From: a bacterium
Lineage (GTDB): Bacteria > Patescibacteriota > Dojkabacteria > JAKAPS01
NCBI GenBank assembly: GCA_021806925.1
Contig: JAKAPS010000008.1
Coordinates: 1-42,104 of the forward strand
Length of the DNA: 42,104 nucleotides
Direction of reading: 5' to 3'
Shown: positions 7,287 to 42,104 of the stretch, piece after piece
Numbering within the stretch: the stretch's first letter is position 1
Layout of the letters: every line of letters starts with the position of its first letter
Notes under the pieces: model-generated
Told to the model about the DNA's origin: nothing
The model's input: only the letters and a program-made list of their open reading frames with translations
Databases searched by the model: none
Position numbers and translations under genes: made by a program

Positions 7287-9185
7287 TTACATATACCCTT
7301 TAGCTTGAGTCTCAAACATTCTCTTGTACATTCCATCATCTATGTTCATAAGCTCCTCATGTGTCCCCTCCTCTTTTACACGACCATTATCTATCACTAT
7401 TATTTTATTAGCTGTTCTTACTGTTGAAAATCTATGTGATATTATCAGTACACTCGATTTTCCTTTAAACTCTTCTTCTATCTTTCTAAATAACAGCTCC
7501 TCATTTAATGCATCTATTGCACTAGTAGGCTCATCTAATACTAGAAGCTTCGGTTTCTTGTACATTACCCTTCCTATTGCTACCTTCTGCCACTCTCCTC
7601 CTGATAGATCAACTCCTCCTGAAAATTGCGAACTTAACATAGTTTCCACTCCATTCGGTAATTTGTCTTTCACTATACTACTTAACCCTGTATTATCCAA
7701 AATTGATTTTACTAGTTCCTCTGACTTCTCTTCATCTTTATTCTCAATATCTCCCAATTTTATATTCTCCTTTATATTTAACCAATATGTCCCAAACTCC
7801 TGCATTAATATTCCTACTAACTTATAATATGATTCTAAATTTATATCCTTTATATCAACTCCATTTACTAGTATACTTCCTTTATCCGGATCAAATATCC
7901 TTAATAACAATCTAACTATAGTTGTCTTTCCTGCTCCATTCACTCCTACTATAGATACACTCTTTCCGCTTTCTATTTTAAAACTTACCCCTTTTAATAC
8001 ATATTTTCCATTTTTTGTTCCTTTTACACTTGGATATTTAAACCATACATTCTGAAACTCTATTGATATACCTTCGTTTGTTCTTTCTACAAGTGTGCTT
8101 CCTTCCTTAGATTTTATTTCATTCCTACTATTCATAAAATCATAAAAATCTTTTACAAATGGTAAATCAGACGATATCTCTCCATATGTATTAAAAATAT
8201 ATGAAAAATCACCCTGTATTGAACCAATATTAGATATCAAATATGTGAAATTTCCAACTTGCAATGTTTTTCTAAACAATACAAGAAATAGAATATATGA
8301 ATAAATCGATAATGTTATCACATTATTTAAAGTACCAATTATTAAGTCGCCTTTTAATTTATTTCTTATTGCCTTTAATTGCTCATTGAAGAAATTACCG
8401 AAGAACTTGTTGTATACATCAAGGAAATAATTCGATGTATTGTTTATTTTCATCTCAACTTTGATATTATTATTCATAAATACATGTTTTGCTTGAGTAA
8501 TATTCTTCTTATCGTCGCTATTTGTATCCCATAGCGACCATATTTTGTTACCATATATTCTTGCATTAACATAATCAAAAACAGATGGAATTATTATAAG
8601 GATAATTAAATATGGTGATATAGTAAACATTAAAGATATATTGACAAATATGCCTATGATAGCATTAAATATACCTAATAGATCAAAACCGTTCTTATTG
8701 AATATATACCCATGGGTAGAGTAGATCTTCTCCATCTTCGTCATTTCATCTGGATTCTCCCAGAGCGACAGATCGACATCAGATATCTTTCTAAGAAGTA
8801 TATTATCAATGTATTTACGTATATTTATACTTAATATATTTATTGATGTATTGTATATACTCCCTAAGACTGAATTTATAAAGGTTAAAATCGCATAAAC
8901 TATTGCCCATACAAGCAAATGAGAAGAATATATTGTTGCTTTAGATGTTGTTACTTCTATAATAATATTGATTAAAATATTCATTAGTATATACATCTGA
9001 ACTGCTCCGCTGACTACTTGGTAAATAGAAACACATTCAGTAATTATGAATTCTTTCTTAGATGATAAGTAAATCAATTTCAGTATATACATATCCAATT
9101 TGAACTCATCAAAAATTACCTTTAATTTTGTTCTTATTTTTTCTATTTTCTTCATTTTAAAAATATCTATATACAAAAATAACAA
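7287..9185 (-). CDS. ABC exporter, fused permease and ATPase
   Basis: 632 aa; N-terminal TM domain, Walker A GVNGAGKTT, signature LSGGEWQK, Walker B LLVLDEPTSAID. Confidence 0.93.
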   Translation of the reverse strand: MLFLYIDIFKMKKIEKIRTKLKVIFDEFKLDMYILKLIYLSSKKEFIITECVSIYQVVSGAVQMYILMNILINIIIEVTTSKATIYSSHLLVWAIVYAILTFINSVLGSIYNTSINILSINIRKYIDNILLRKISDVDLSLWENPDEMTKMEKIYSTHGYIFNKNGFDLLGIFNAIIGIFVNISLMFTISPYLIILIIIPSVFDYVNARIYGNKIWSLWDTNSDDKKNITQAKHVFMNNNIKVEMKINNTSNYFLDVYNKFFGNFFNEQLKAIRNKLKGDLIIGTLNNVITLSIYSYILFLVLFRKTLQVGNFTYLISNIGSIQGDFSYIFNTYGEISSDLPFVKDFYDFMNSRNEIKSKEGSTLVERTNEGISIEFQNVWFKYPSVKGTKNGKYVLKGVSFKIESGKSVSIVGVNGAGKTTIVRLLLRIFDPDKGSILVNGVDIKDINLESYYKLVGILMQEFGTYWLNIKENIKLGDIENKDEEKSEELVKSILDNTGLSSIVKDKLPNGVETMLSSQFSGGVDLSGGEWQKVAIGRVMYKKPKLLVLDEPTSAIDALNEELLFRKIEEEFKGKSSVLIISHRFSTVRTANKIIVIDNGRVKEEGTHEELMNIDDGMYKRMFETQAKGYM

Positions 9186-9240: not shown

Positions 9241-11133
9241 TTACATATACCCTTTAGCTTGAGTCTCAAACATTCTCTTGTACATTCCATCATCTATGTT
9301 CATAAGCTCCTCATGTGTCCCCTCCTCTTTTACACGACCATTATCTATCACTATTATTTTATTAGCTGTTCTTACTGTTGAAAATCTATGTGATATTATC
9401 AGTACACTCGATTTTCCTTTAAACTCTTCTTCTATCTTTCTAAATAACAGCTCCTCATTTAATGCATCTATTGCACTAGTAGGCTCATCTAATACTAGAA
9501 GCTTCGGCTTCTTGTACATTACTCTTCCTATTGCTACCTTCTGCCACTCTCCTCCTGATAGATCAACTCCTCCTGAAAATTGCGAACTTAGCATTGTTTC
9601 AACTCCATTTTGTAATTTATCTTTCACTATATTAGTTAATCCTGTATTATCAAGAATATATTTGATTGTCTCTTCTTGTCTTTCTAAATCATTATTAACA
9701 TTCTCAATATCTCCCAATTTTATATTCTCCTTTATATTCAACCAGTATTTTCCGAATTCCTGCATTAATATTCCTACTGAATTATAGTAGGACTCTAAAT
9801 TAATATCTTTTATATCAACTCCATTTACTAGTATCTTTCCTTTATCTGGATCAAATATTCTTAACAACAATCTAACTATAGTTGTCTTTCCTGCTCCATT
9901 CACTCCTACTATAGATACACTCTTTCCGCTTTCTATTTTAAAACTTACCCCTTTTAATACATATTTTCCATTTTTTGTTCCTTTTACACTTGGATATTTA
10001 AACCATACATTCTGAAACTCTATTGATATACCTTCGTTTGTTCTTTCTACAAGTGTGCTTCCTTCCTTCGATTTTATTACATTCTCACTGTTCATAAAAT
10101 CATAGAAATCTTTTATAAATGGTAAATCTGATGATATAAATCCATATGTATTCATAAGTCCAGTAAAATCGCCTTGAATTGTTCCAATGTTTGAAATTAA
10201 GTATGTGAAACTACCTAACTGCAAGCTTCTTTTGAATAGTACCATGTATAAAATATAAAAATATATTGAAAGTGTAATTATATTGTTAAAAGCACCAATT
10301 ACTACGTCTGTCCATAGCTTTTTTATTATTGCTTTTATCTGCTCATCCATGAAATTCCCAATGGATCTGTTGTATACATTAACAAAATATCCTGATGTAT
10401 TATTTACCTTCATTTCTACCTTTGTATCCGTTTTAGAGAATATTTTATTGACCTGTTCAGCATTTTTCCTATCGTCACCATTTGTATTCCATATACTCCA
10501 AATGGCTTTGCCATACTTCCTTAAATTCAAATAATTTAAAATCGATGGCAATATAATAAGTAGAATAAAGAATGGTGATATTGTAAATAGCAAATATATA
10601 TTAAAAAACATTCCAATAAACATATATATAATTTCAAGTAAATTATACGAATTTTGATATACTTTATATTCTGCTACCTCCTTTATTTTTTGCATCTTAG
10701 TCATTTCATCTGGAGTTTCCCAGAATGATAAATCAATCGATGCCATTTTGTTATAAAATATATTATTAATATATTTCTCAAAATCCATAACTAAAATTCT
10801 GTATGATACATATTTGAAATTAGAAAAGAATGTACCTAAGAAACTGATTATTGCATATATTGTCAGCCATACAAAAAGATGTGAAGATGATACTGTTTCG
10901 TGAGATGAAAATATCTGCACCATAATGTTAAGTACAACATACATAAGAATATATGATTGAAACGTATATGTAATTGTCTGATATATATTTATAGAAACAG
11001 TTATTATAAATTCTTTTCTGTTAGATAAATAAAGTAATTTAAGGAGATATAAATTCAGTTTTAATTCCACATAAACGCCATTTAGCCTTTTTTTAATTTT
11101 ATTCATTTTAAATACGTAAAAAAATATCTTCAA
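9241..11133 (-). CDS. ABC exporter, fused permease and ATPase (tandem paralogue)
   Basis: 630 aa, same motifs; NBD nearly identical to the 7287..9185 protein. Confidence 0.93.
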   Translation of the reverse strand: MKIFFYVFKMNKIKKRLNGVYVELKLNLYLLKLLYLSNRKEFIITVSINIYQTITYTFQSYILMYVVLNIMVQIFSSHETVSSSHLFVWLTIYAIISFLGTFFSNFKYVSYRILVMDFEKYINNIFYNKMASIDLSFWETPDEMTKMQKIKEVAEYKVYQNSYNLLEIIYMFIGMFFNIYLLFTISPFFILLIILPSILNYLNLRKYGKAIWSIWNTNGDDRKNAEQVNKIFSKTDTKVEMKVNNTSGYFVNVYNRSIGNFMDEQIKAIIKKLWTDVVIGAFNNIITLSIYFYILYMVLFKRSLQLGSFTYLISNIGTIQGDFTGLMNTYGFISSDLPFIKDFYDFMNSENVIKSKEGSTLVERTNEGISIEFQNVWFKYPSVKGTKNGKYVLKGVSFKIESGKSVSIVGVNGAGKTTIVRLLLRIFDPDKGKILVNGVDIKDINLESYYNSVGILMQEFGKYWLNIKENIKLGDIENVNNDLERQEETIKYILDNTGLTNIVKDKLQNGVETMLSSQFSGGVDLSGGEWQKVAIGRVMYKKPKLLVLDEPTSAIDALNEELLFRKIEEEFKGKSSVLIISHRFSTVRTANKIIVIDNGRVKEEGTHEELMNIDDGMYKRMFETQAKGYM

Positions 11134-21379: not shown

Positions 21380-23023
21380 ATGACGCCTAATTATTCAGTT
21401 GATGATTTAAAAAACTTCTTGAACGAGGTATCAATGCCAGATGATGATGAGATTGATCCTCATAAACTTAGATATGTCATATATGCCAGAAAATCAACAG
21501 AAGATAAGAAAAGACAAATAAAGTCAATTAAAGATCAGATAACTGAATGTCGAAACTATGCGGAAGATAATGGATATAGAGTTACTAAAATCTTTCGTGA
21601 AGAAATGTCAGCAAAGGAACCTGATATAAGGCCTGTTTTTTACTAGATGATTGAAGGTATACGTAAAGGCCAGTATGATGCAATTTTGGCATGGCATCCT
21701 GATAGGCTTGCAAGAAATATGAAAGATGCTGGAGTAATAATAGATTTACTCGATAAAAAAATCATAAAAGATTTACAATTTGTGACTTTCCATTTTCAGA
21801 ATAATAGTATGGGAAAGGTACTTCTTGGGATAGCATTTGTTTTATCAAAACAATATTCAGATAACTTAAGTGATAATGTAAAAAGAGGAATAAAAAGAAG
21901 AATTTTGGAAGGGAAGGTACTCAACAAACCTAAGCACGGATATTACAAAGATATTAATTCTTTTTTGCAACCAGATGGCCGTAATTTCACATTAATTTCT
22001 AAAGCTTGGAAAATGCGTCAAGAAGGTAAAACGCTTGATCAGATAGCTGAATATCTTAATGAACAGGGATATGAAAAAGCTACAGACAATCTTGGTAAAA
22101 ATCATAAGCCTTTTGAGATGAATAAGAAAAGAATGTTTGAGGTATTTACCGATCCTACGTACGCTGGCGTTTTAAGCTATGGAAGCACAAATGTTAATCT
22201 AATAGATATTTATGATTTCACACCAATAGTTACCCCTGATGAGTACTTTGCGATTACCAAAATTGATGACTCGACAGGAGATAAGAGAATGAGAAGCGCT
22301 GGCACAAGCCGTGAGCGGAGACAAGCAGAATTTATGAGAGGTATGATTCAATGTGGTATATGTGGCCTTACAATGACCGCAGGGATCACAAATAAGTATT
22401 TAAACAGTGGGAAGGTAAATAAATATCTGTACTACCGTTGTGATAATAAAGGTTGTTATTTTCATGGAAAATCAGTAAAACCACAAATGATATTGGATTT
22501 TATAGTTGATTTTTTAAGAGAAAACAATTTTACCACAGAAGAGGCGTATAATGATTACTTAGCGGAGATGAAAAGTTTAAATATTGGCAAAAATGAAGAG
22601 TTAAGTGGAATGCTTAAATCTTTTAATAAGAGATTAGAAAGTGTAAAAAACACAATAGAAGACGATAAGAAACTGTTAAGAACAGAAGAAGATGAGACTA
22701 TGAAGAGTGTGTATAAGGATGACTTAAAAGAGGCATTAAAAAAGCAAGAAGAGATTGAAGGATATATTGCTCAAACGAAAGAGGAGCTAACCAAACTTAA
22801 AGATGGATTTTTGTCGTTTACAGAATTTCTTGAACTTTTCCAAAAATTACCGTCAGTAGTGGAAAATTCAAAGGATTTAACTGAAAGAGATTTCTATATC
22901 AGAAAAGTGTTCTTGAACCTTACAGTAAATAAAGAGAAAGTACTGTCATACCAACTCAATGAGCCATTTGCTGAACTAATAAAAAGAGGGTTTGTTACTT
23001 CAAATCGGGATAACAGGACTTGA
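21380..23023 (+). pseudogene. large serine recombinase interrupted by an in-frame TAG
   Basis: YVIYARKSTEDKKRQIKSIKDQI (catalytic Ser) then RPVFY*MIEGIRKGQYDAILAWHPDRLARN; both ORFs (21380..21646, 21647..23023) share one frame. Zinc ribbon CGICGL...CDNKGC present. Confidence 0.85.
22999..23011. repeat. putative right attachment core
   Basis: TTCAAATCGGGAT, overlapping both the recombinase 3' end and the tRNA-Pro 3' end. Confidence 0.7.
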
Positions 23024-32696: not shown

Positions 32697-34202
32697 ATGG
32701 ATAATACACAAATCATCAAAAATAACAGCTTAAAATCATTTATACCAGAGAATGGGTTATATAAATACTTCTCTGGAGGTGACTGGTTACAAAGCGTAAC
32801 TGGTGAAACTATACCAGTACAATCCCCTATTGATAACTCAATTGTGGGCCGTATTCAATCAATCAGTGTATCTGAATTAAGAGATACATTTGAAAATGCT
32901 TTTTTTGCATTTTCAAAATGGTCAAGTAAAACGATGGATGAGAGAAGCAATATACTTGTAAGAACAGCTGATATAATGAGTGAGAATATAGATATTTTGA
33001 GTCATGTTTTATCATATGAAATAGGGAAAACAGTAGCTGACTCAAATGATGAAGTGGAAAGAACAGTTAGCCTTATAAAATACTATGCTGAAGAAGGCAG
33101 AAGAATACATAATGAATCCCTATACTCTGAAAGTTTCCCTGGATATAATAACAAAAAGATCGCTATAACAAAGAGAGTTCCTCTTGGAGTTGTTGTAGCA
33201 ATTCCACCATTTAATTATCCAATAAATGAAGGTGCTCCTAAAATTGTTGGAGCTTTAATTGCAGGAAATACAGTTGTTTTTAAGCCATCAACACAAGGTG
33301 CAATAAGTGCATTACTTATGGTTGAATGTTTTAGATTAGCGGGAATTCCAGAAGGCGTGTTAAATGCTGTAACTGGAAAATCAGATGTAATTGGTGATGA
33401 ATTAGTCACAAACAGGCGTTGCAGTGCCATAAACTTTACTGGAGGGACAAATACTGCAAATAGCATAAAATCAAAAATTGGATTGATACCATTAATTGCT
33501 GGTCTTGGAGGTAAGGACGCATCAATTGTATGTAATGACGCTGATATTGATCTTGCTGTTAGCGAGATTGCAAAAGGAGCTTTTTCATATGCAGGACAAA
33601 GATGTACTGGTATAAAAAGAGTACTTGTACAAAGTGATATAAAAGATCAATTTGAAGAAAAATTTGTTAAATATGTATCAGAACACTTCGTACTTGGTGA
33701 TCCAAGGGAGAAAGAAACAACAATGGGACCAGTAATCAATATCAGGACTGTTGAATTATTTGATGAACTATATGATGACGCAGTTAAATTAGGTGCTAAA
33801 GTGTTACTTGGAGGTAAGAATCTTGAAAATGAAAATAGACTTTTCTTAAATGCAACTATTCTAACCAATGTCTCATTAGATATGAAACTTGCAAAAGAGG
33901 AGCCATTTGCTCCAATATTGCCTATTATTCAATTTACTACAATAGAAGAAGCAGTTGATATAGCAAATTCATCTGAATATGGATTACAATCCAGCATATT
34001 TACAAAGGATATAAATACTGCATTTACAGTATCAGAGGCTTTAGATGTTGGAACTGTACAAATAAATGGAAAAGATTCAAGGGGACCTGATCATTTCCCA
34101 TTCATTGGAGTTAAGGCATCTGGAATTGGACAAGTTCAAGGTGCAAAGTACCTTATTGAATCTATGACTAGGATTAAAACTATAGTGATTAACAAAAAGT
34201 AG
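32697..34202 (+). CDS. gapN: aldehyde dehydrogenase, probably GapN (non-phosphorylating GAPDH)
   Basis: 501 aa; IAGLGGKDASIV, YAGQRCTGIKRVLV (catalytic Cys), INGKDSRGPDHFPFIGVKASGIG. Confidence 0.85.
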   Translation: MDNTQIIKNNSLKSFIPENGLYKYFSGGDWLQSVTGETIPVQSPIDNSIVGRIQSISVSELRDTFENAFFAFSKWSSKTMDERSNILVRTADIMSENIDILSHVLSYEIGKTVADSNDEVERTVSLIKYYAEEGRRIHNESLYSESFPGYNNKKIAITKRVPLGVVVAIPPFNYPINEGAPKIVGALIAGNTVVFKPSTQGAISALLMVECFRLAGIPEGVLNAVTGKSDVIGDELVTNRRCSAINFTGGTNTANSIKSKIGLIPLIAGLGGKDASIVCNDADIDLAVSEIAKGAFSYAGQRCTGIKRVLVQSDIKDQFEEKFVKYVSEHFVLGDPREKETTMGPVINIRTVELFDELYDDAVKLGAKVLLGGKNLENENRLFLNATILTNVSLDMKLAKEEPFAPILPIIQFTTIEEAVDIANSSEYGLQSSIFTKDINTAFTVSEALDVGTVQINGKDSRGPDHFPFIGVKASGIGQVQGAKYLIESMTRIKTIVINKK

Positions 34203-34303: not shown

Positions 34304-34873
34304 TTAAAATGGTTTTGTATTATCAGGACATGTGATTCTACTACCATTCTCAAACACATCTGCAAGAATAATCTCATCATCACTATTAACAAAATATACT
34401 TTATTATTTCTAAGATCAATAATTAAATCTACAATTTGAGATCCTGCCGCAAATACCGTACATCCAATAGCAGATAATGTTTTGGCAAAATCTTTACTAG
34501 ACATTTTGCAAGATCTAAGTACTACTTTAATAGGCCCTAATTTGTCGAATAGTTTGATTGCATTATTTCCTACAATATCCTCGATGTTTATAAATTCTCG
34601 ACTCCCCAACTGAATAGAAGTACCATCACCGTGACCAGACATAATCAATATTGACATTTTTCCATATATACTATTGATTCTAAGTAGCCTATTTACTAAA
34701 CCATACAGATCTCCACACTCAGCAACTAATAAATTCATATGCTCATTACCTACTGCACGATTTATATAATCGACGAAAGAACAATTAGCCATTGATCCGT
34801 TATAGTCTGAATAAGGGTTTATTATAAGACAGTATGGAATATTATTAATACTGTTTAGTTCATTGGTATCCAC
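34304..34873 (-). pseudogene. caspase-like (clan CD) peptidase domain fragment, 5' end cut by the IS66 element
   Basis: MSILIMSGHGDGTSIQLG and IKVVLRSCKMSS give a His-Cys dyad; the called GTG start lies within the IS terminal repeat. Confidence 0.6.
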
Positions 34874-36245
34874 TCAATAAGTTTGTGTAAATAAGGGAAA
34901 GTAGAGTAAAATTGAAGAAGGATGGCGAGTAATTTAGAAGAAGCGATAGAAATAATAAGGAAGCAGTCAGAAAGAATAGAAGAACTAGAGGAAATAATAA
35001 GGAGATTAACGAATCAACCAAGTAAGCCAAAGTTTTCACAAGAGAACTATTCACAAAGTAGGAATGATAAAAAAATAAAAAAGGAATGGAAGAAAGGAAG
35101 TAAGAATGGGAAAATAGTAGTAACGGAGAGGAAAGAAATAAGAGGAGGGAATGGTCAATGCACATGCGGATGCAAGGAATTTAAGATCATAAGAACAAGA
35201 AGCAGAATAGTACAGGGAATAAGCATAAAATTAAACAATATAGAATATAAATTAATAGATGAAGAATGTATTAAATGTAGAAAAGAATATAGAGCGAATG
35301 TAGATGAAATAGGATACAATAAGGAAACACGAAGTTTGATATCAATATTAAAATATGGATTTAGGATGACACATCCATTAATAAAGAAATTCCTAGAAGA
35401 ACAAGGAATACAAATAAGTAGTGGAGAAATAAGTAAAATATTAATGGAGAATAGCAAATCACTACAAGATGCATATACATATTTAAGAACAGTAGGGATA
35501 AAAAAGAGTAAATACAATCAAACAGATGCAACAATAACAAGAAGGAGAAACACAAAAAGAATAAAAAGAGAACATTTACAATTTACAGGAAATAAATATA
35601 TATCAACATTTAAGATAACAGATAAGTATAATATAGAAAGTGTATATCATGCAGTGACAAAAAGAGGAGTAAATAAAGGATTTGTAGCAGATGATTCAAC
35701 AAGCAATCATATAGGAAAAAGACAATTATGCTGGGTACATGAATTAAGACATTATCAAAAATTAACACCGATATTAAGAGGAAATATAAGAATAAAGGAA
35801 GAAATAATAAATGAATTAAGAGGAGTTTATCATGAAGAAAAAACATATGGAAATAATGCGACACAAGAAAAGAAGGAAGAAATACAAGAATTATTTAGAA
35901 GAGTAGTAAATAAGACAACAGGATATCTACCAATAGATGAATGCTTAAAAAGAACAAGAAAAAAAGAAAAAGAATTACTAATGTTTTTAGATTATCCATA
36001 TATACCAATACATAATAATGAATCAGAGAATAGTTTAAGAGAAGCAGTGATAATAAGGAAGATATCACATGAGACGAAATCGAAAATAGGAGATAAATCA
36101 TTAGAGAGGCATTTATCAGTAATACAAACGATAAAGAAACAGAAACTAAATTTATATCGAACATTTAGGGAAATAATAGAAGGGACATTTGATTTGAGTC
36201 TATTAACCAGTCTAACTGTTTAACACTAACTTATTGAGTGGATAC
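34866..36245 (+). mobile_element. single-ORF IS66-family insertion sequence
   Basis: Terminal inverted repeats GTATCCACTCAATAAGTTtGTG (34866-34887) and GTATCCACTCAATAAGTTaGTG (reverse of 36224-36245), 21/22 identical, bracketing one transposase ORF. Confidence 0.92.
34922..36223 (+). CDS. IS66-family transposase
   Basis: 433 aa; N-terminal coiled coil, zinc-finger-like CTCGCKEF...CIKC, C-terminal IPIHNNESENSLREAVIIRKIS. Confidence 0.9.
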   Translation: MASNLEEAIEIIRKQSERIEELEEIIRRLTNQPSKPKFSQENYSQSRNDKKIKKEWKKGSKNGKIVVTERKEIRGGNGQCTCGCKEFKIIRTRSRIVQGISIKLNNIEYKLIDEECIKCRKEYRANVDEIGYNKETRSLISILKYGFRMTHPLIKKFLEEQGIQISSGEISKILMENSKSLQDAYTYLRTVGIKKSKYNQTDATITRRRNTKRIKREHLQFTGNKYISTFKITDKYNIESVYHAVTKRGVNKGFVADDSTSNHIGKRQLCWVHELRHYQKLTPILRGNIRIKEEIINELRGVYHEEKTYGNNATQEKKEEIQELFRRVVNKTTGYLPIDECLKRTRKKEKELLMFLDYPYIPIHNNESENSLREAVIIRKISHETKSKIGDKSLERHLSVIQTIKKQKLNLYRTFREIIEGTFDLSLLTSLTV

Positions 36246-36900
36246 AAATATATTGTTATTATTAGACTGCAAATAGTAGTAATGACCCCGTGATATCTAC
36301 ATTAGTAGAAATATATTGTTATTATTAGACGTCTCAAACTAACTTGATGTATCCGACATCTACATTAGTAGAAATATATTGTTATTATTAGACGTCTCAA
36401 ACTAACTTGATGTATCCGACATCTACATTAGTAGAAATATATTGTTATTATTAGACTAAATTTATAGACGGTCATTGGTACCATATCTACATTAGTAGAA
36501 ATATATTGTTATTATTAGACGCAATGGTGTTCGATCTCTTTCATTGCGATCTACATTAGTAGAAATATATTGTTATTATTAGACTAAAAAAGTGGAAAAA
36601 ACTGCCAAGATATCTACATTAGTAGAAATATATTGTTATTATTAGACGGAATTTCTAGAACTCTGCAGAATTAAATCTACATTAGTAGAAATATATTGTT
36701 ATTATTAGACGAAAATCTCACAATGGGTGCGGTTTACAATCTACATTAGTAGAAATATATTGTTATTATTAGACTTTAAACGATGTTGTTTCAAAAACTA
36801 GCATCTACATTAGTAGAAATATATTGTTATTATTAGACGCATTCAGGATTGATACTGATGGAAAATCTACATTAGTAGAAATATATTGTTATTATTAGAC
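36246..36900 (-). CRISPR. type V-A CRISPR array, 10 complete repeats plus one truncated distal repeat, 10 spacers
   Basis: 36-nt repeat (minus strand) GTCTAATAATAACAATATATTTCTACTAATGTAGAT, spacers 26-28 nt; full repeats start at 36295, 36358, 36421, 36485, 36549, 36612, 36675, 36739, 36803, 36865. 3' handle TTTCTAC-TAAT-GTAGAT is the Cas12a type. Confidence 0.98.
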
Positions 36901-37136
36901 AGCATTTTCATTGTAATATCAATATAAAATTATATTGTATACAAAAACACATATAGTATGGTATTGAAAAATGCCTTAATAATAACACATGTTTTTATAA
37001 AAAACATAAACACTCAGGTTTCGTATTTTTTACATAACCTTGGCTAAATGAAATGACCAAGGTTTCATAATAACAATTTATACCCACTAATTTAGTTACA
37101 TATTAAATTTTAAATGTGCATAAACATTATATACCA
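36901..37136 (-). promoter_or_regulatory. CRISPR leader region between cas2 and the first repeat
   Basis: AT-rich noncoding 236 bp with two inverted repeats (36989-37007; 37036-37064). Confidence 0.6.
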
Positions 37137-37415
37137 TTAAAAATATATCACATCTTTGTCTTCATAGCTAGCACTACCATATCTTAGTATGTTTTTCTCA
37201 CATTTTGAACATATTTGGAAAATTAAAATATTGTCTGTCTTTTTAAATTTACTTTTATACTCATTCTCAACTTCTGTAATTATTATGTCTAGTAATCTTT
37301 GACTATTTTTTATTCTAAATACAGAATATTGAATTCTTTCTCCATATTGTGAAAGAAATTTTGAGAACTTTTGCCTTCTCTTATTTGATGAGAAATCATA
37401 TGCTACTATAATCAT
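37137..37415 (-). CDS. cas2: CRISPR-associated endonuclease Cas2
   Basis: 92 aa; MIIVAYDFSSNKRRQKFSKFLSQYGERIQYSVFRI. Confidence 0.95.
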   Translation of the reverse strand: MIIVAYDFSSNKRRQKFSKFLSQYGERIQYSVFRIKNSQRLLDIIITEVENEYKSKFKKTDNILIFQICSKCEKNILRYGSASYEDKDVIYF

Positions 37416-38362
37416 CTTATTTCAAATGGTTTAAATTTATATTTATCAGGGTTTGATATATACCTGTAATAACAACCTATATAATTATATAACTCTTCCT
37501 TCTTTTTAACTATTAACTCAAACCACACATTAACATATTTTTTAGTTATTTCACTATTTTTAAATGAATACATTCCATTTTTTATTTTAAAATCATTCTC
37601 ATTAAGTATTCCTAATGAATACATCTTGTATAACTCCTTATCAATAATTGGGCGTATTGGTTCCATTAGATCACAACTCAAGGATTTTCTTTGGAAAAAC
37701 ATCTTATGATACACACCTTTGTATGTATCAAACCCAAATAGCTTTAATAGTGCATCTATATAGTTAAATAAAAACGTATATCCAATATCAAGGAGTAGAT
37801 TATTAATATCCTCCTTTGTTTGTGGTGCCCTCCTATTCCAATCTAACTCATTAAACAATGTAGAGAAATATTTTCTCGCCACAGTCCCCTCTAGACCTAA
37901 CAAAATTTTGTAATCAGTTACATCATCAACTCTTGTTATGTAATCTTTATAATTAAATCCCAATTTATTGTACTGCTTAAGTACTCTATGTTGATTAATT
38001 ATTTTATTTTTTATAATTAACTTTGCTATTGATAAATTAGAATCTTCAGGAAGTAAATATTGTTTGCTTCTAAGAATATAATTTGCCTCTGAATATGACA
38101 TAACCTCAGCATATTGTTTAAATGATCTATTGAGGAATATTATAGATATACCTCGCTCCTTAATTTTTCTCAATATTTGAGTTGTAATTGTTAAATCTCC
38201 AATAACAAATATAGCAAAGATAGAAAAAAGTGATATTTGATTTATTGGGATTGTATTATTATATAGACGTATATTTTCATTTGAAAATCTCAATGAGTTT
38301 ACTTCTTTATTCCCAAAAACAAACAAAATCTTTTTATTTTTAAAGTCATTTATTTGTAGCAT
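37412..38362 (-). CDS. cas1: CRISPR-associated integrase Cas1
   Basis: 316 aa; Cas1-like layout ISIIFLNRSFKQYAEVMS, GLEGTVARKYFSTLFNELDWNRRAP; between cas4 and cas2. Confidence 0.95.
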   Translation of the reverse strand: MLQINDFKNKKILFVFGNKEVNSLRFSNENIRLYNNTIPINQISLFSIFAIFVIGDLTITTQILRKIKERGISIIFLNRSFKQYAEVMSYSEANYILRSKQYLLPEDSNLSIAKLIIKNKIINQHRVLKQYNKLGFNYKDYITRVDDVTDYKILLGLEGTVARKYFSTLFNELDWNRRAPQTKEDINNLLLDIGYTFLFNYIDALLKLFGFDTYKGVYHKMFFQRKSLSCDLMEPIRPIIDKELYKMYSLGILNENDFKIKNGMYSFKNSEITKKYVNVWFELIVKKKEELYNYIGCYYRYISNPDKYKFKPFEIR

Positions 38363-38915
38363 TTGAATTTAAACATAATTTACTATATATGCATTTGTTA
38401 CATTTATTCCTATTTGTTTTAATAGTTGAATTTATTGGATCAAAATTTTCTATATCTATCAAGAAATCCTTAAACTGTCTTAAATCATCATATGTAGGAA
38501 TATCAATATTGTAACTTTTATTATTCTTAAGCGAATATATTTCAATGGATTCTATCTTGTACTTCATCTCAATCAAACATACATATTGCCCCCATAACTG
38601 ATATATATATCCTTGATATATTTTTGTTATATTATACTTTCTTTCAATTAATTTGTGATTTTTGACATTTAACAAATCTATTTTCCCGCATAAATTATAT
38701 TCATCGCTAAATACAGACATACCTTGAAATATATATTTACTTGTTGAATACATATTGCCATCTATATTTTTATGATTCAATGAACCGTTAAATTGGAATT
38801 TACTTTGATAATCAAATTTACCATAATTTTCATACACAGAATGTACATACAATGAATATGGACAAAATATAAAATCATTTAGTTTTGATATTTGTATGTA
38901 TGAGTCCATTATCAA
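38346..38915 (-). CDS. cas4: CRISPR-associated exonuclease Cas4
   Basis: 189 aa; FCPYSLYVH, GKIDLLN...LIERKYN, CNKCIYSKLCL four-Cys cluster. Confidence 0.93.
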   Translation of the reverse strand: MIMDSYIQISKLNDFIFCPYSLYVHSVYENYGKFDYQSKFQFNGSLNHKNIDGNMYSTSKYIFQGMSVFSDEYNLCGKIDLLNVKNHKLIERKYNITKIYQGYIYQLWGQYVCLIEMKYKIESIEIYSLKNNKSYNIDIPTYDDLRQFKDFLIDIENFDPINSTIKTNRNKCNKCIYSKLCLNSNATNK

Positions 38916-41878
38916 AATCCGCTACTTCTATATTCAATTTTATTATTATCAAGAAACTCATCCCACCTACTGTCTTCTATATATTTTACACCAGAATCAT
39001 TCCTAATATCATCGATTGCAATCAATCCTTTTCTAGCTATATTATATGCTCCATTAGAATCGCCAGAAACAGGATATTTAGCATTATCAGAATCATCTAG
39101 TTCATTTTTACCTTCTTTTTCGTATACTCTACTATCAAAAAATGGAGGAACTGGTGATTGAATAAAGTCATAATCATATGAATCTTTAGTTAATGTATTT
39201 CTTAACTGAATTACATTATTGAACATATATATAAAATCCTCTAAAAATTTATTAGTGACTTTATCCGTAATCTGATCAAGAATATTACTATTCTTATCTA
39301 TATTATTATCATAGAAGAATTTATTATATATATCTGTCATATTCATTATTTTTCTATCCTTATAGTCTTTTTTTTCAACAGAACTATCTGATACTACTCT
39401 ATCTACATTTGTATACACAATATAATTACGAGCATTTTCCTTGTCGCCATTCGAGTATTCTATTTTATATGAATTATAACCTGAATCCCACTCTATAGAT
39501 TTTATATACTTCTTTATATCCACAAACATTTTAGATTTACTTCCTTTCTTTATATAAACATCCTTTCTAAAATTACCAACTGGGTCAGTAATAGATGTGT
39601 AATTTGGTCGTACAAATAACAACATGCCTGCCTGATATTTATTTTTGTAGGAACCTTCTACTTTTGGGGTAAAAGTAATTGCACAATTAACACCACCCGG
39701 TTCATCATATTTTTTACCTTTAATAATTAAATAATGTAATTTATTCTCCAACGCTACCTCAAATTTCTTATATATGGACTTCTCGATTTTTTGCCTTGAT
39801 CTCATGAATCCGCTATTTAGATCTTCCAATACAACAACTGCATTATATTTAATCATTAGATTTGCAATATATGAAGTTACATTTGACATGTATCCATTTT
39901 TCAGATTTCTTATATTTTCTATTTTATCCCAATTTTTTCTTGCATTTTCTCTTTCTTTAGACTTATCTGTCAGCAACATGTTGTAATCCTTTCCATTCAT
40001 TTTGTTCATACTTCCCTGTTTAATTATTTCGCCTTTCATATTTATAACAGAATAATATAATAAGTTTCTCTCCCCCCTATCTATCCCAATTAAATTAATA
40101 TCATTATGCTTTATATATTCATTACATATTGTGTTTATGTCTATTTCTCTATTCTGTTTCCAATTCAAAGTAATTGGAACATGTAAAAAATATTTATCAA
40201 CTCTGAATCGTGCATTATGTACAGCTCTTTCATTTCGTTCAGTAATATTAATATGATCTTTTTCTGTTATAATGGATCTATTATCATTTATGAACTCTCC
40301 TGCTTTTCTATAAAATATTTCTGCATTACCATTTAATTTATTCACTGCATTGTCGTGAAAAAGCGATTCCCAATAAATTGTATGCAGATTACTAGTTCCA
40401 AAATCATGATTTTTCTTAATTAAATCCTTATTCTGTATCCTAAACATGTAGAAATCATTATTCTTCACTTTCTCATCAATATTAGAGAAGTTAATTAATT
40501 TAAAATTAGCTAAATATGATTGACTGTCTATATCACTATATAAATCAATATATATCTTTTTCATATCTGAATTTCCATCAAGAAGCTCACTAAATTTATT
40601 ATTTACATTATCTCTCCTCCATTGGAATATTTTTTCGTATTCAGCTTCCAAATGCCCAATCTTAAAAAATTCAATATTTCTAGATTTCATCTTCTCTTTT
40701 GACTCAGACTTACTAAATTTACTGCCAAAAAGTTGTTTGGGTAATGATTTTACAGATCCACCTCCCAATTGCTTGTATTCTAACCACTCCCACTCACTAG
40801 ATCCATGATCAATTTTAAGATTCTCAAAATAGTTACGTGAAATAGTAACACCATGTTTCAATATTAATAGGTAATATTCAGCTTTATTTCTCCTTATAAT
40901 TGCACCTCTGTTATCTACTATTTTGTTTTTATCCCACCCATTGAGTAAACTGCTACAGTCAAATGTTAATTTTTCACTTCTATTTACATAAACTGCCTTT
41001 GTAATATAGTTTCTAACACTGTTATACATTGAAAATATTGAAGAATATTCCTCTATGAATATATCAATATTATTATACAATGATTCACATTCATCATTAT
41101 CATAATTTATGCTGTTTGTTTTTTTTATACTGAATATTTTTAAGAACCTAATAAAATATACCAATTTATCTATATATAGTTTTATTGCATCCTTATTTTT
41201 TAAATCGTTTTTTAAAAAATATTCAGTCTCTTGATTCTCTAGATTCAATGATTCTCTTAATCTACTAAATTCACTGCACTCCTTTATTATACTCAACAGC
41301 TTCTCCTTAAATTTGTCTATGAATCCTTCAATCTCAATTACTTCAATTTTGAAGATATTTTTAAATTTTTTCTGTTCACTTAAATAGCTTAATTCATTCC
41401 ACTTTCTCAATATGCTGTATGAAAGGTCTGCTATCTTACTTTTATTTATATATAGATTAGGAATATTACTTTCCAATTGCCTAATAATATTTACATATTT
41501 TTCTTTGAATTCTTTTAAATTATTATCATCAAACGATAACAAAATTCCCTTTAGTTCATAGTCATCTTTTATTACTGCATATCCTCGAACAGATTCACCC
41601 TGCTGTGTTGGAGTCATACCTATTTGTTTGTATAGTTTCAACAATTTTTCTAATTTATTTCTATTACTGTCCTTATCTACCATGCTCTGATTAATCAAAT
41701 TTATATCTGAATTTATTTCACCAACAGCTAGATTATATACTTCAATTTGCTTTTGTGTAAAACACTTATTATATGAATATAGATCAAATACTTCACTATA
41801 TTTACTCAGTATATCTTCTTTATGCTTAGTTATTGCATTAAATCTTTCTATATTTTTTATAAATATAGATCTAACAAG
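38912..41878 (-). pseudogene. cas12a: Cas12a effector lacking its N-terminal part (5'-truncated by the IS630-family element)
   Basis: RuvC motifs IGIDRGERNLLYYS, VVLEDLNSGF, GDSNGAYNIARKG; NGWDKNK, YKQLGGGSVKSLPKQLF. The ORF stays open upstream of the called start (41698) to 41878, reading LVRSIFIKNIERFNAITKHKEDILSKYSEVFDLYSYNKCFTQKQIEVYNLAVGEINSDIN. Confidence 0.93.
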
Positions 41879-41882
41879 TCAA

Positions 41883-42104
41883 CTAAGCGTCAAGATTAAG
41901 AAAAGAATAATTGAATTTATGAGAGTTCAGATATTTCACAAATTCAATTCCAGTGTTATAAATATTCTCAATATATCTATTATGTGTGACTTGATGCCGT
42001 CCTTCTTTCCATACATGTTCTTGGGGATTTAATTCTGGAGAATAGGCTGGAAAGAATATTTGTTGTATATGTTTATTTTTTTTTATGTATTCTTGAACCT
42101 TTGA
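41883..42104 (-). mobile_element. C-terminal part of an IS630-family transposase, cut by the window edge
   Basis: Reads SKVQEYIKKNKHIQQIFFPAYSPELNPQEHVWKEGRHQVTHNRYIENIYNTGIEFVKYLNSHKFNYSFLNLDA*, the classic YSPELNPxEHVWK motif. Confidence 0.9.

What the first reader, a model, noticed from the sequence alone, without database searches (positions are those of the whole stretch)
34850..36300. IS66 element cuts the last CRISPR repeat and has no target-site duplication
The right inverted repeat ends at 36245 and is immediately followed by the final 22 nt (plus strand) of a CRISPR repeat. The left flank is unrelated (a caspase-like gene), and the 8 bp beside each end differ (GTTCATTG vs AAATATAT). 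IS66 normally makes 8-bp duplications, so this suggests an IS-mediated deletion or rearrangement that removed the older spacers and joined the array to the caspase-like gene.
Basis: partly seen in the sequence, partly recalled or inferred. Interest (0 to 1): 0.62.

Follow-up and report, generated by a model that had tools for sequence, protein, structure and literature searches.

The report
IS-scarred, broken type V-A CRISPR locus
A small jumping gene sits where the old end of a bacterial CRISPR array was cut off, most likely by a local deletion, and a second jumping gene has cut the cas12a gene in two, so this immune locus looks broken; it is a well-documented example of an ordinary kind of genome decay.

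Summary
A 1,380-bp IS66-family (ISBst12-like) element with 25-nt inverted ends (34866-36245) abuts the last 22 nt of a 36-nt Cas12a repeat at the leader-distal end of a type V-A array. Its 8-bp flanks (GTTCATTG / AAATATAT) match at 2 of 8 positions, and no other end placement gives a duplication.

New context supports a local deletion. In all 8 order-level relatives found to hold gapN, uvrC follows it directly (7 overlapping or within 45 bp, 1 with a 1-kb gap). Here that junction holds the caspase-like ORF, IS66, array, cas2, cas1, cas4 and cas12a. uvrC lies on contig C5, joined through a second element: an IS630-like insertion with a TA duplication splits cas12a (214 N-terminal codons on C5, the rest in the window). 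The joint therefore lies inside one island whose borders are collinear with relatives, which argues against a long-range rearrangement or assembly chimera. The missing repeat half occurs nowhere else in the draft genome.

Not shown: that older spacers were lost, that the 189-aa ORF is a caspase or truncated, or the route (adjacent deletion, IS-IS recombination, insertion at a break). IS-scarred CRISPR decay is known, so interest is modest.

The parts
32697..34202 (+). gapN (aldehyde dehydrogenase of the GAPDH type), left border of the island; directly followed by uvrC in relatives
   Evidence: tblastn in 8 order-level relatives, 49-63% identity
34304..34865 (-).
   Evidence: frame runs into the IS, in-frame TGA just before the GTG, first in-frame ATG is codon 28; no family match; no homologue
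34866..36245 (+). IS66-family, ISBst12-like insertion sequence
   Evidence: inverted ends; only complete copy in the draft genome
34866..34890 (+). left inverted repeat
34922..36223 (+). IS66 transposase, 433 aa
   Evidence: PF03050 E 1.8e-18 over profile 8-280 of 284; NF033517 E 1.4e-37 below cut-off
36221..36245 (-). right inverted repeat
   Evidence: 2 mismatches to the left end
36246..36267 (-). stub of the cut CRISPR repeat (5' 22 of 36 nt in the array's direction); hairpin half missing
   Evidence: identical to all ten intact repeats over these 22 nt
36268..36900 (-). CRISPR array: distal spacer 36268-36294, then ten identical 36-nt repeats with nine more spacers
36901..37136 (-). leader region
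   Evidence: AT-rich (22.5% GC) stretch between cas2 and the array; position only
37137..38915 (-). cas2, cas1, cas4 of type V-A
   Evidence: TIGR01573, TIGR04329 and TIGR04328 over cut-off
38912..41863 (-). cas12a, larger part (C-terminal); the first 214 codons are on contig C5
   Evidence: TIGR04330; PADLOC Cas12a E 1e-185 from profile position 239
41866..42104 (-). IS630-like element, one end; it splits cas12a (TA duplication at 41864-41865 and on C5)
   Evidence: PF13358 DDE_3 E 3.5e-8; matching inverted ends and frame restored across the joint with one TA

Best explanation
This is a decaying type V-A CRISPR-Cas island that this lineage carries between gapN and uvrC. An ISBst12-like IS66 element entered the island and a local deletion ending at one of its ends followed. 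The deletion removed the 14-nt hairpin half of a CRISPR repeat, any array beyond it, the target duplication, and probably the 5' part of the next ORF, so the array now ends at the IS. Shown: both joints, the absence of a duplication, the absence of the missing repeat half elsewhere in the draft, the collinear gapN and uvrC borders, and a separate IS630-like insertion that splits cas12a. Inferred: that the sequence was deleted rather than never present; that the route was an adjacent (intramolecular) deletion, with recombination between two IS copies as the close alternative; and that the locus no longer gives Cas12a interference.
For: Ends, stub and flanks. ISBst12-group ISDge4 makes an 8-bp repeat, so one was expected (PMC12898284). 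gapN is directly followed by uvrC in 8 of 8 relatives compared, while here both sides of the joint lie between these genes. The missing repeat half is absent from the rest of the draft. All intact repeats are identical, and the stub is exact up to the IS. Adjacent deletions and IS-IS recombination are frequent causes of missing duplications (PMC11708052). cas12a is split by a second IS, which fits a locus no longer kept by selection.
Against: No strain or species with the undeleted arrangement is held, so the lost DNA has not been seen. The draft is 92.7% complete, so the missing half could lie in an unassembled part. The IS has no close relative in which its own duplication length could be checked. 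The C23-C5 link rests on the split gene and synteny, not on reads.
Confidence: 0.72

Rival explanations
1. Recombination between two directly repeated copies of this IS, one in the array and one in the neighbouring ORF, deleted what lay between and left a hybrid copy with unlike flanks. Same outcome as the best explanation by another route.
For: The genome carries a 141-bp remnant and a left-end-like relic of the IS, so there were other copies; this route is frequent in E. coli (PMC11708052).
Against: Needs two insertions within a few kb; only one complete copy is in the draft.
Confidence: 0.3
2. The IS went into a double-strand break or a deletion in progress, without making a duplication.
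For: Proposed for IS5 and IS481 from laboratory lines (PMC11708052).
Against: Not known for IS66; the sequence gives no mark that separates it from adjacent deletion.
Confidence: 0.1
3. The array ended in a naturally shortened terminal repeat, and an IS with an unlike-flank insertion happened to land there; no spacers were lost.
For: Terminal repeats of three other type V-A arrays in the phylum depart from the consensus in the last 3-4 nt.
Against: Those keep the hairpin core; here 14 nt are gone and the break coincides exactly with the IS end. The missing duplication would remain unexplained.
Confidence: 0.12
4. Assembly chimera: two unrelated places joined at the IS.
For: Draft of 23 contigs; contigs do break at the IS630-like element.
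Against: The IS66 element is single-copy apart from a 141-bp remnant, and the two sides carry gapN and, through the split cas12a, uvrC, which are neighbours in 8 of 8 relatives.
Confidence: 0.04
5. A normal insertion whose 8-bp duplication has decayed by mutation.
For: Decay is one stated cause of missing duplications (PMC11708052).
Against: Only 2 of 8 bases match and nothing left of the IS is repeat or spacer, while the IS ends and the ten repeats are almost unmutated.
Confidence: 0.01

Closest known systems
IS66 family, ISBst12 group (ISDge4 of Deinococcus geothermalis, PMC12898284)
   Same: Single transposase ORF of similar length (433 against 449 aa), IS66-type transposase domain, ends of similar start (GTATCCACTCA against GTGACTACTCA / GTAACTGCTCA).
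   Different: Transposase divergent (below the NCBIfam cut-off; no close relative found); no 8-bp duplication at this copy.
IS-associated deletions without target duplication (Lenski lines, PMC11708052)
   Same: Complete IS, unlike flanks, missing sequence on at least one side.
   Different: There the ancestor is known; here the undeleted state has not been seen.
Degraded CRISPR-Cas loci with IS insertions in Escherichia and Shigella (PMC2886076)
   Same: IS in the array and in cas genes, loss of function inferred.
   Different: Type V-A rather than type I, and a small-genome uncultured lineage.
Type V-A CRISPR-Cas loci of the same phylum (G118, G232, G161, G274, G358)
   Same: cas4, cas1, cas2 next to an array (cas12a also found in four of the five stretches), Cas12a-type repeats where read.
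   Different: No relative of the 189-aa ORF nearby and no IS66 transposase match.

Membership tests
IS66 family insertion sequence (ISBst12 group) | IS66 DDE transposase (TnpC) | tested here: met
   PF03050 E 1.8e-18, bits 67.4 against cut-off 23.1; NF033517 E 1.4e-37 but below cut-off
IS66 family insertion sequence (ISBst12 group) | single ORF without tnpA and tnpB | tested here: met
   one long plus-strand ORF between the ends; length 1,380 bp
IS66 family insertion sequence (ISBst12 group) | terminal inverted repeats | tested here: met
   25 nt with 2 mismatches
IS66 family insertion sequence (ISBst12 group) | 8-bp target duplication | tested here: not met
   2 of 8 bases match; this concerns this copy, whose flank was changed afterwards on the best reading; no sister copy could be tested
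Type V-A CRISPR-Cas | Cas12a with RuvC domain | tested here: met
   TIGR04330 441.9 bits; PF18516 E 7.9e-68; gene split by an IS
Type V-A CRISPR-Cas | cas4, cas1, cas2 of the PREFRAN type beside the array | tested here: met
   TIGR04328, TIGR04329, TIGR01573
Type V-A CRISPR-Cas | working interference | not testable with these tools
   predicted lost, since cas12a is split
IS630-like element (second IS) | DDE_3 transposase, inverted ends, TA duplication | tested here: met
   the middle of the element is not assembled
Caspase-like (clan CD) peptidase | match to a peptidase family and the His-Cys pair | tested here: inconclusive
   SGHG and RSC motifs by eye; no match in Pfam, NCBIfam, PHROGs or PADLOC; model pLDDT 41

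The most novel reading that the evidence does not exclude
The 189-aa ORF is the remnant of a caspase-like accessory effector that belonged to this type V-A locus (same strand, downstream of the array), and the IS-linked deletion disarmed both at once. No other type V-A locus examined has such a gene, so this is only not excluded.
Probability: 0.04. Interest if true: 0.6.

Novelty: new member of a known kind. Interest (0 to 1): 0.25.

Why it matters
It shows, with joints, flanks and relatives, how a CRISPR-Cas12a locus in a small-genome bacterium decays through two unrelated insertion sequences. It also warns against reading the neighbouring ORF as a functional partner of the CRISPR system, since the present adjacency was made at an IS, and against listing this Cas12a as an intact compact 928-aa effector, since its N-terminus lies on another contig behind an IS.

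Tried and rejected
Close relatives of the transposase were sought in viral contigs, species genomes, 145 relatives and 380 phylum genomes (only 25-30% identity over part); plasmids gave at most 33% identity. So target duplications of sister copies could not be examined. Homologues of the 189-aa ORF: none in 97 relatives, genome contigs, phages or plasmids. Its AlphaFold model without an alignment was too poor to use (pLDDT 41), so no fold search was made. Three spacers and the repeat gave no exact match in viral contigs. Long-range rearrangement was set aside because gapN and uvrC remain the two borders of the interval. Decay of a normal duplication was rejected because nothing left of the IS is array. 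A C10 sequence resembling the left end has no clear right end nearby and was left as a relic.

Full report
What is there. The window is the whole of contig C23 (42,104 bp) of a 928,548-bp draft genome in 23 contigs, 92.7% complete. Between 34866 and 36245 lies a 1,380-bp insertion sequence. Its ends are GTATCCACTCAATAAGTTTGTGTAA and the complement of GTATCCACTCAATAAGTTAGTGTTA. Its one long plus-strand ORF (34922-36223, 433 aa) matches DDE_Tnp_IS66 over nearly the whole profile (E 1.8e-18) and the NCBIfam IS66 transposase model below its cut-off. It is a divergent IS66-family element of the single-ORF ISBst12 type.

The joints. To the right, 36246-36267 is the 22-nt end of a CRISPR repeat; all ten intact repeats are identical over 36 nt and share these 22 nt. 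On the minus strand, in which array and cas genes are read, the stub is the 5' part of the repeat. The missing 14 nt (CTACTAATGTAGAT) carry the Cas12a-type crRNA hairpin. To the left is unrelated sequence inside a 189-aa minus-strand ORF. The 8-bp flanks GTTCATTG and AAATATAT share 2 of 8 bases. Moving either end by up to 8 nt and testing lengths of 4-14 gave nothing that did not run into the IS itself, except a 4-nt ATTG. The ISBst12-group element ISDge4 of Deinococcus makes an 8-bp repeat (PMC12898284), so a duplication was to be expected.

Orientation. cas4, cas1 and cas2 of type V-A and a Cas12a lie at 37137-41863 on the minus strand, with a leader region at 36901-37136.

The island and its borders. 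In the one same-family genome held and in seven further genomes of the order, gapN is followed directly by uvrC on the same strand. The reading frames overlap or lie 5-45 bp apart in seven, and 1,034 bp apart in the same-family genome. In this genome gapN is at 32697-34202 and uvrC is at C5:789-2135. Everything in between is an island found in none of the relatives compared: the 189-aa ORF, the IS66 element, the array and the cas genes. Both sides of the IS66 joint thus belong to one interval whose outer borders are collinear with relatives. This speaks for a local event, against a long-range rearrangement, and against a chimeric assembly, all the more as the IS66 element is single-copy apart from a 141-bp remnant (C2:479-621, 92%) and a 25-nt left-end-like relic (C10:23510).

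The window's right edge is an IS630-like element (DDE_3, E 3.5e-8). Its other end starts contig C5, next to the N-terminal 214 codons of Cas12a. The two ends are inverted repeats, each with TA outside. Joining the two cas12a flanks with a single TA gives an open frame across the joint (...NRIVNENLDLFIKNIERFNAI...). This is an insertion with a TA duplication that splits cas12a. A further end of the same element closes contig C13, which explains the contig breaks. The 928-aa ORF in the window is therefore not a compact Cas12a but the larger part of a split gene. The effector is predicted to be lost in this assembly; other strains may be intact.

Mechanism. A complete IS with unlike flanks and a cut feature on one side is the usual mark of an adjacent deletion or of recombination between two IS copies. 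In the Lenski lines these are the frequent causes of missing duplications, and insertion at breaks without duplication has also been proposed (PMC11708052). The missing repeat half occurs nowhere else in the draft, which fits deletion better than inversion. The sequence cannot decide between adjacent deletion, IS-IS recombination and insertion at a break, nor which flank is the original insertion site. The confidence given for the best explanation covers the deletion itself and includes the recombination route, which is listed among the rivals only as a different route to the same outcome.

Limits of the claim. 'Older spacers were removed' is possible but not shown. In three type V-A arrays of other genomes of the phylum the last repeat departs from the consensus in its final 3-4 nt, so the cut repeat could have been the natural last one, with as little as 10-14 nt missing. 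That the 189-aa ORF lost its 5' part is likely, because its frame runs into the IS, its only upstream start (GTG) lies inside the IS end after an in-frame TGA, and the first in-frame ATG is codon 28. No homologue was found for comparison. 'Caspase-like' rests on SGHG and RSC motifs only: no family library matches and the structure model was unusable. No relative of this ORF lies near the other type V-A loci examined, so there is no sign of a functional link to the CRISPR system.

Known context. IS insertions in arrays and cas genes, and cas deletions bordered by IS, are described for Escherichia and Shigella (PMC2886076), and IS-linked rearrangements of CRISPR loci for Sulfolobus (PMC4390879). 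CRISPR-Cas systems are rare in candidate-phyla bacteria, but Cas12a systems there are known (PMC6509639). The finding is a well-supported case of a known process, hence the modest interest score.

Noticed in passing
window 41864-42104 and C5:1-768 (L028): cas12a is split by an IS630-like element across a contig gap; both ends and the TA duplication are present, and the frame is open across the joined flanks.
   Followed up: yes
window 36331-36357 and 36394-36420: Two neighbouring spacers near the distal end are identical (27 nt), so one spacer-repeat unit was duplicated.
   Followed up: no
L066, L068, L069: Terminal repeats of three other type V-A arrays in the phylum depart from the consensus in their last 3-4 nt.
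   Followed up: partly
C2:479-621 (L013) and C10:23510-23534 (L020): A 141-bp right-end remnant of the IS66 element (92% identical) and a 25-nt left-end-like sequence without a clear right end.
   Followed up: partly
window 21380-23023: A serine recombinase-like reading frame is split by one in-frame TAG at 21644-21646, directly followed by an ATG.
   Followed up: no
window 7287-9185 and 9241-11133: Two tandem ABC transporter genes have nearly identical C-terminal ATPase halves but diverged N-terminal halves, which suggests gene conversion.
   Followed up: no
L033:3171-4010 (G001): In the same-family genome a 279-aa ORF unrelated by tblastn to the island lies between gapN and uvrC, so this junction has taken up different cargo in two genera.
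   Followed up: partly
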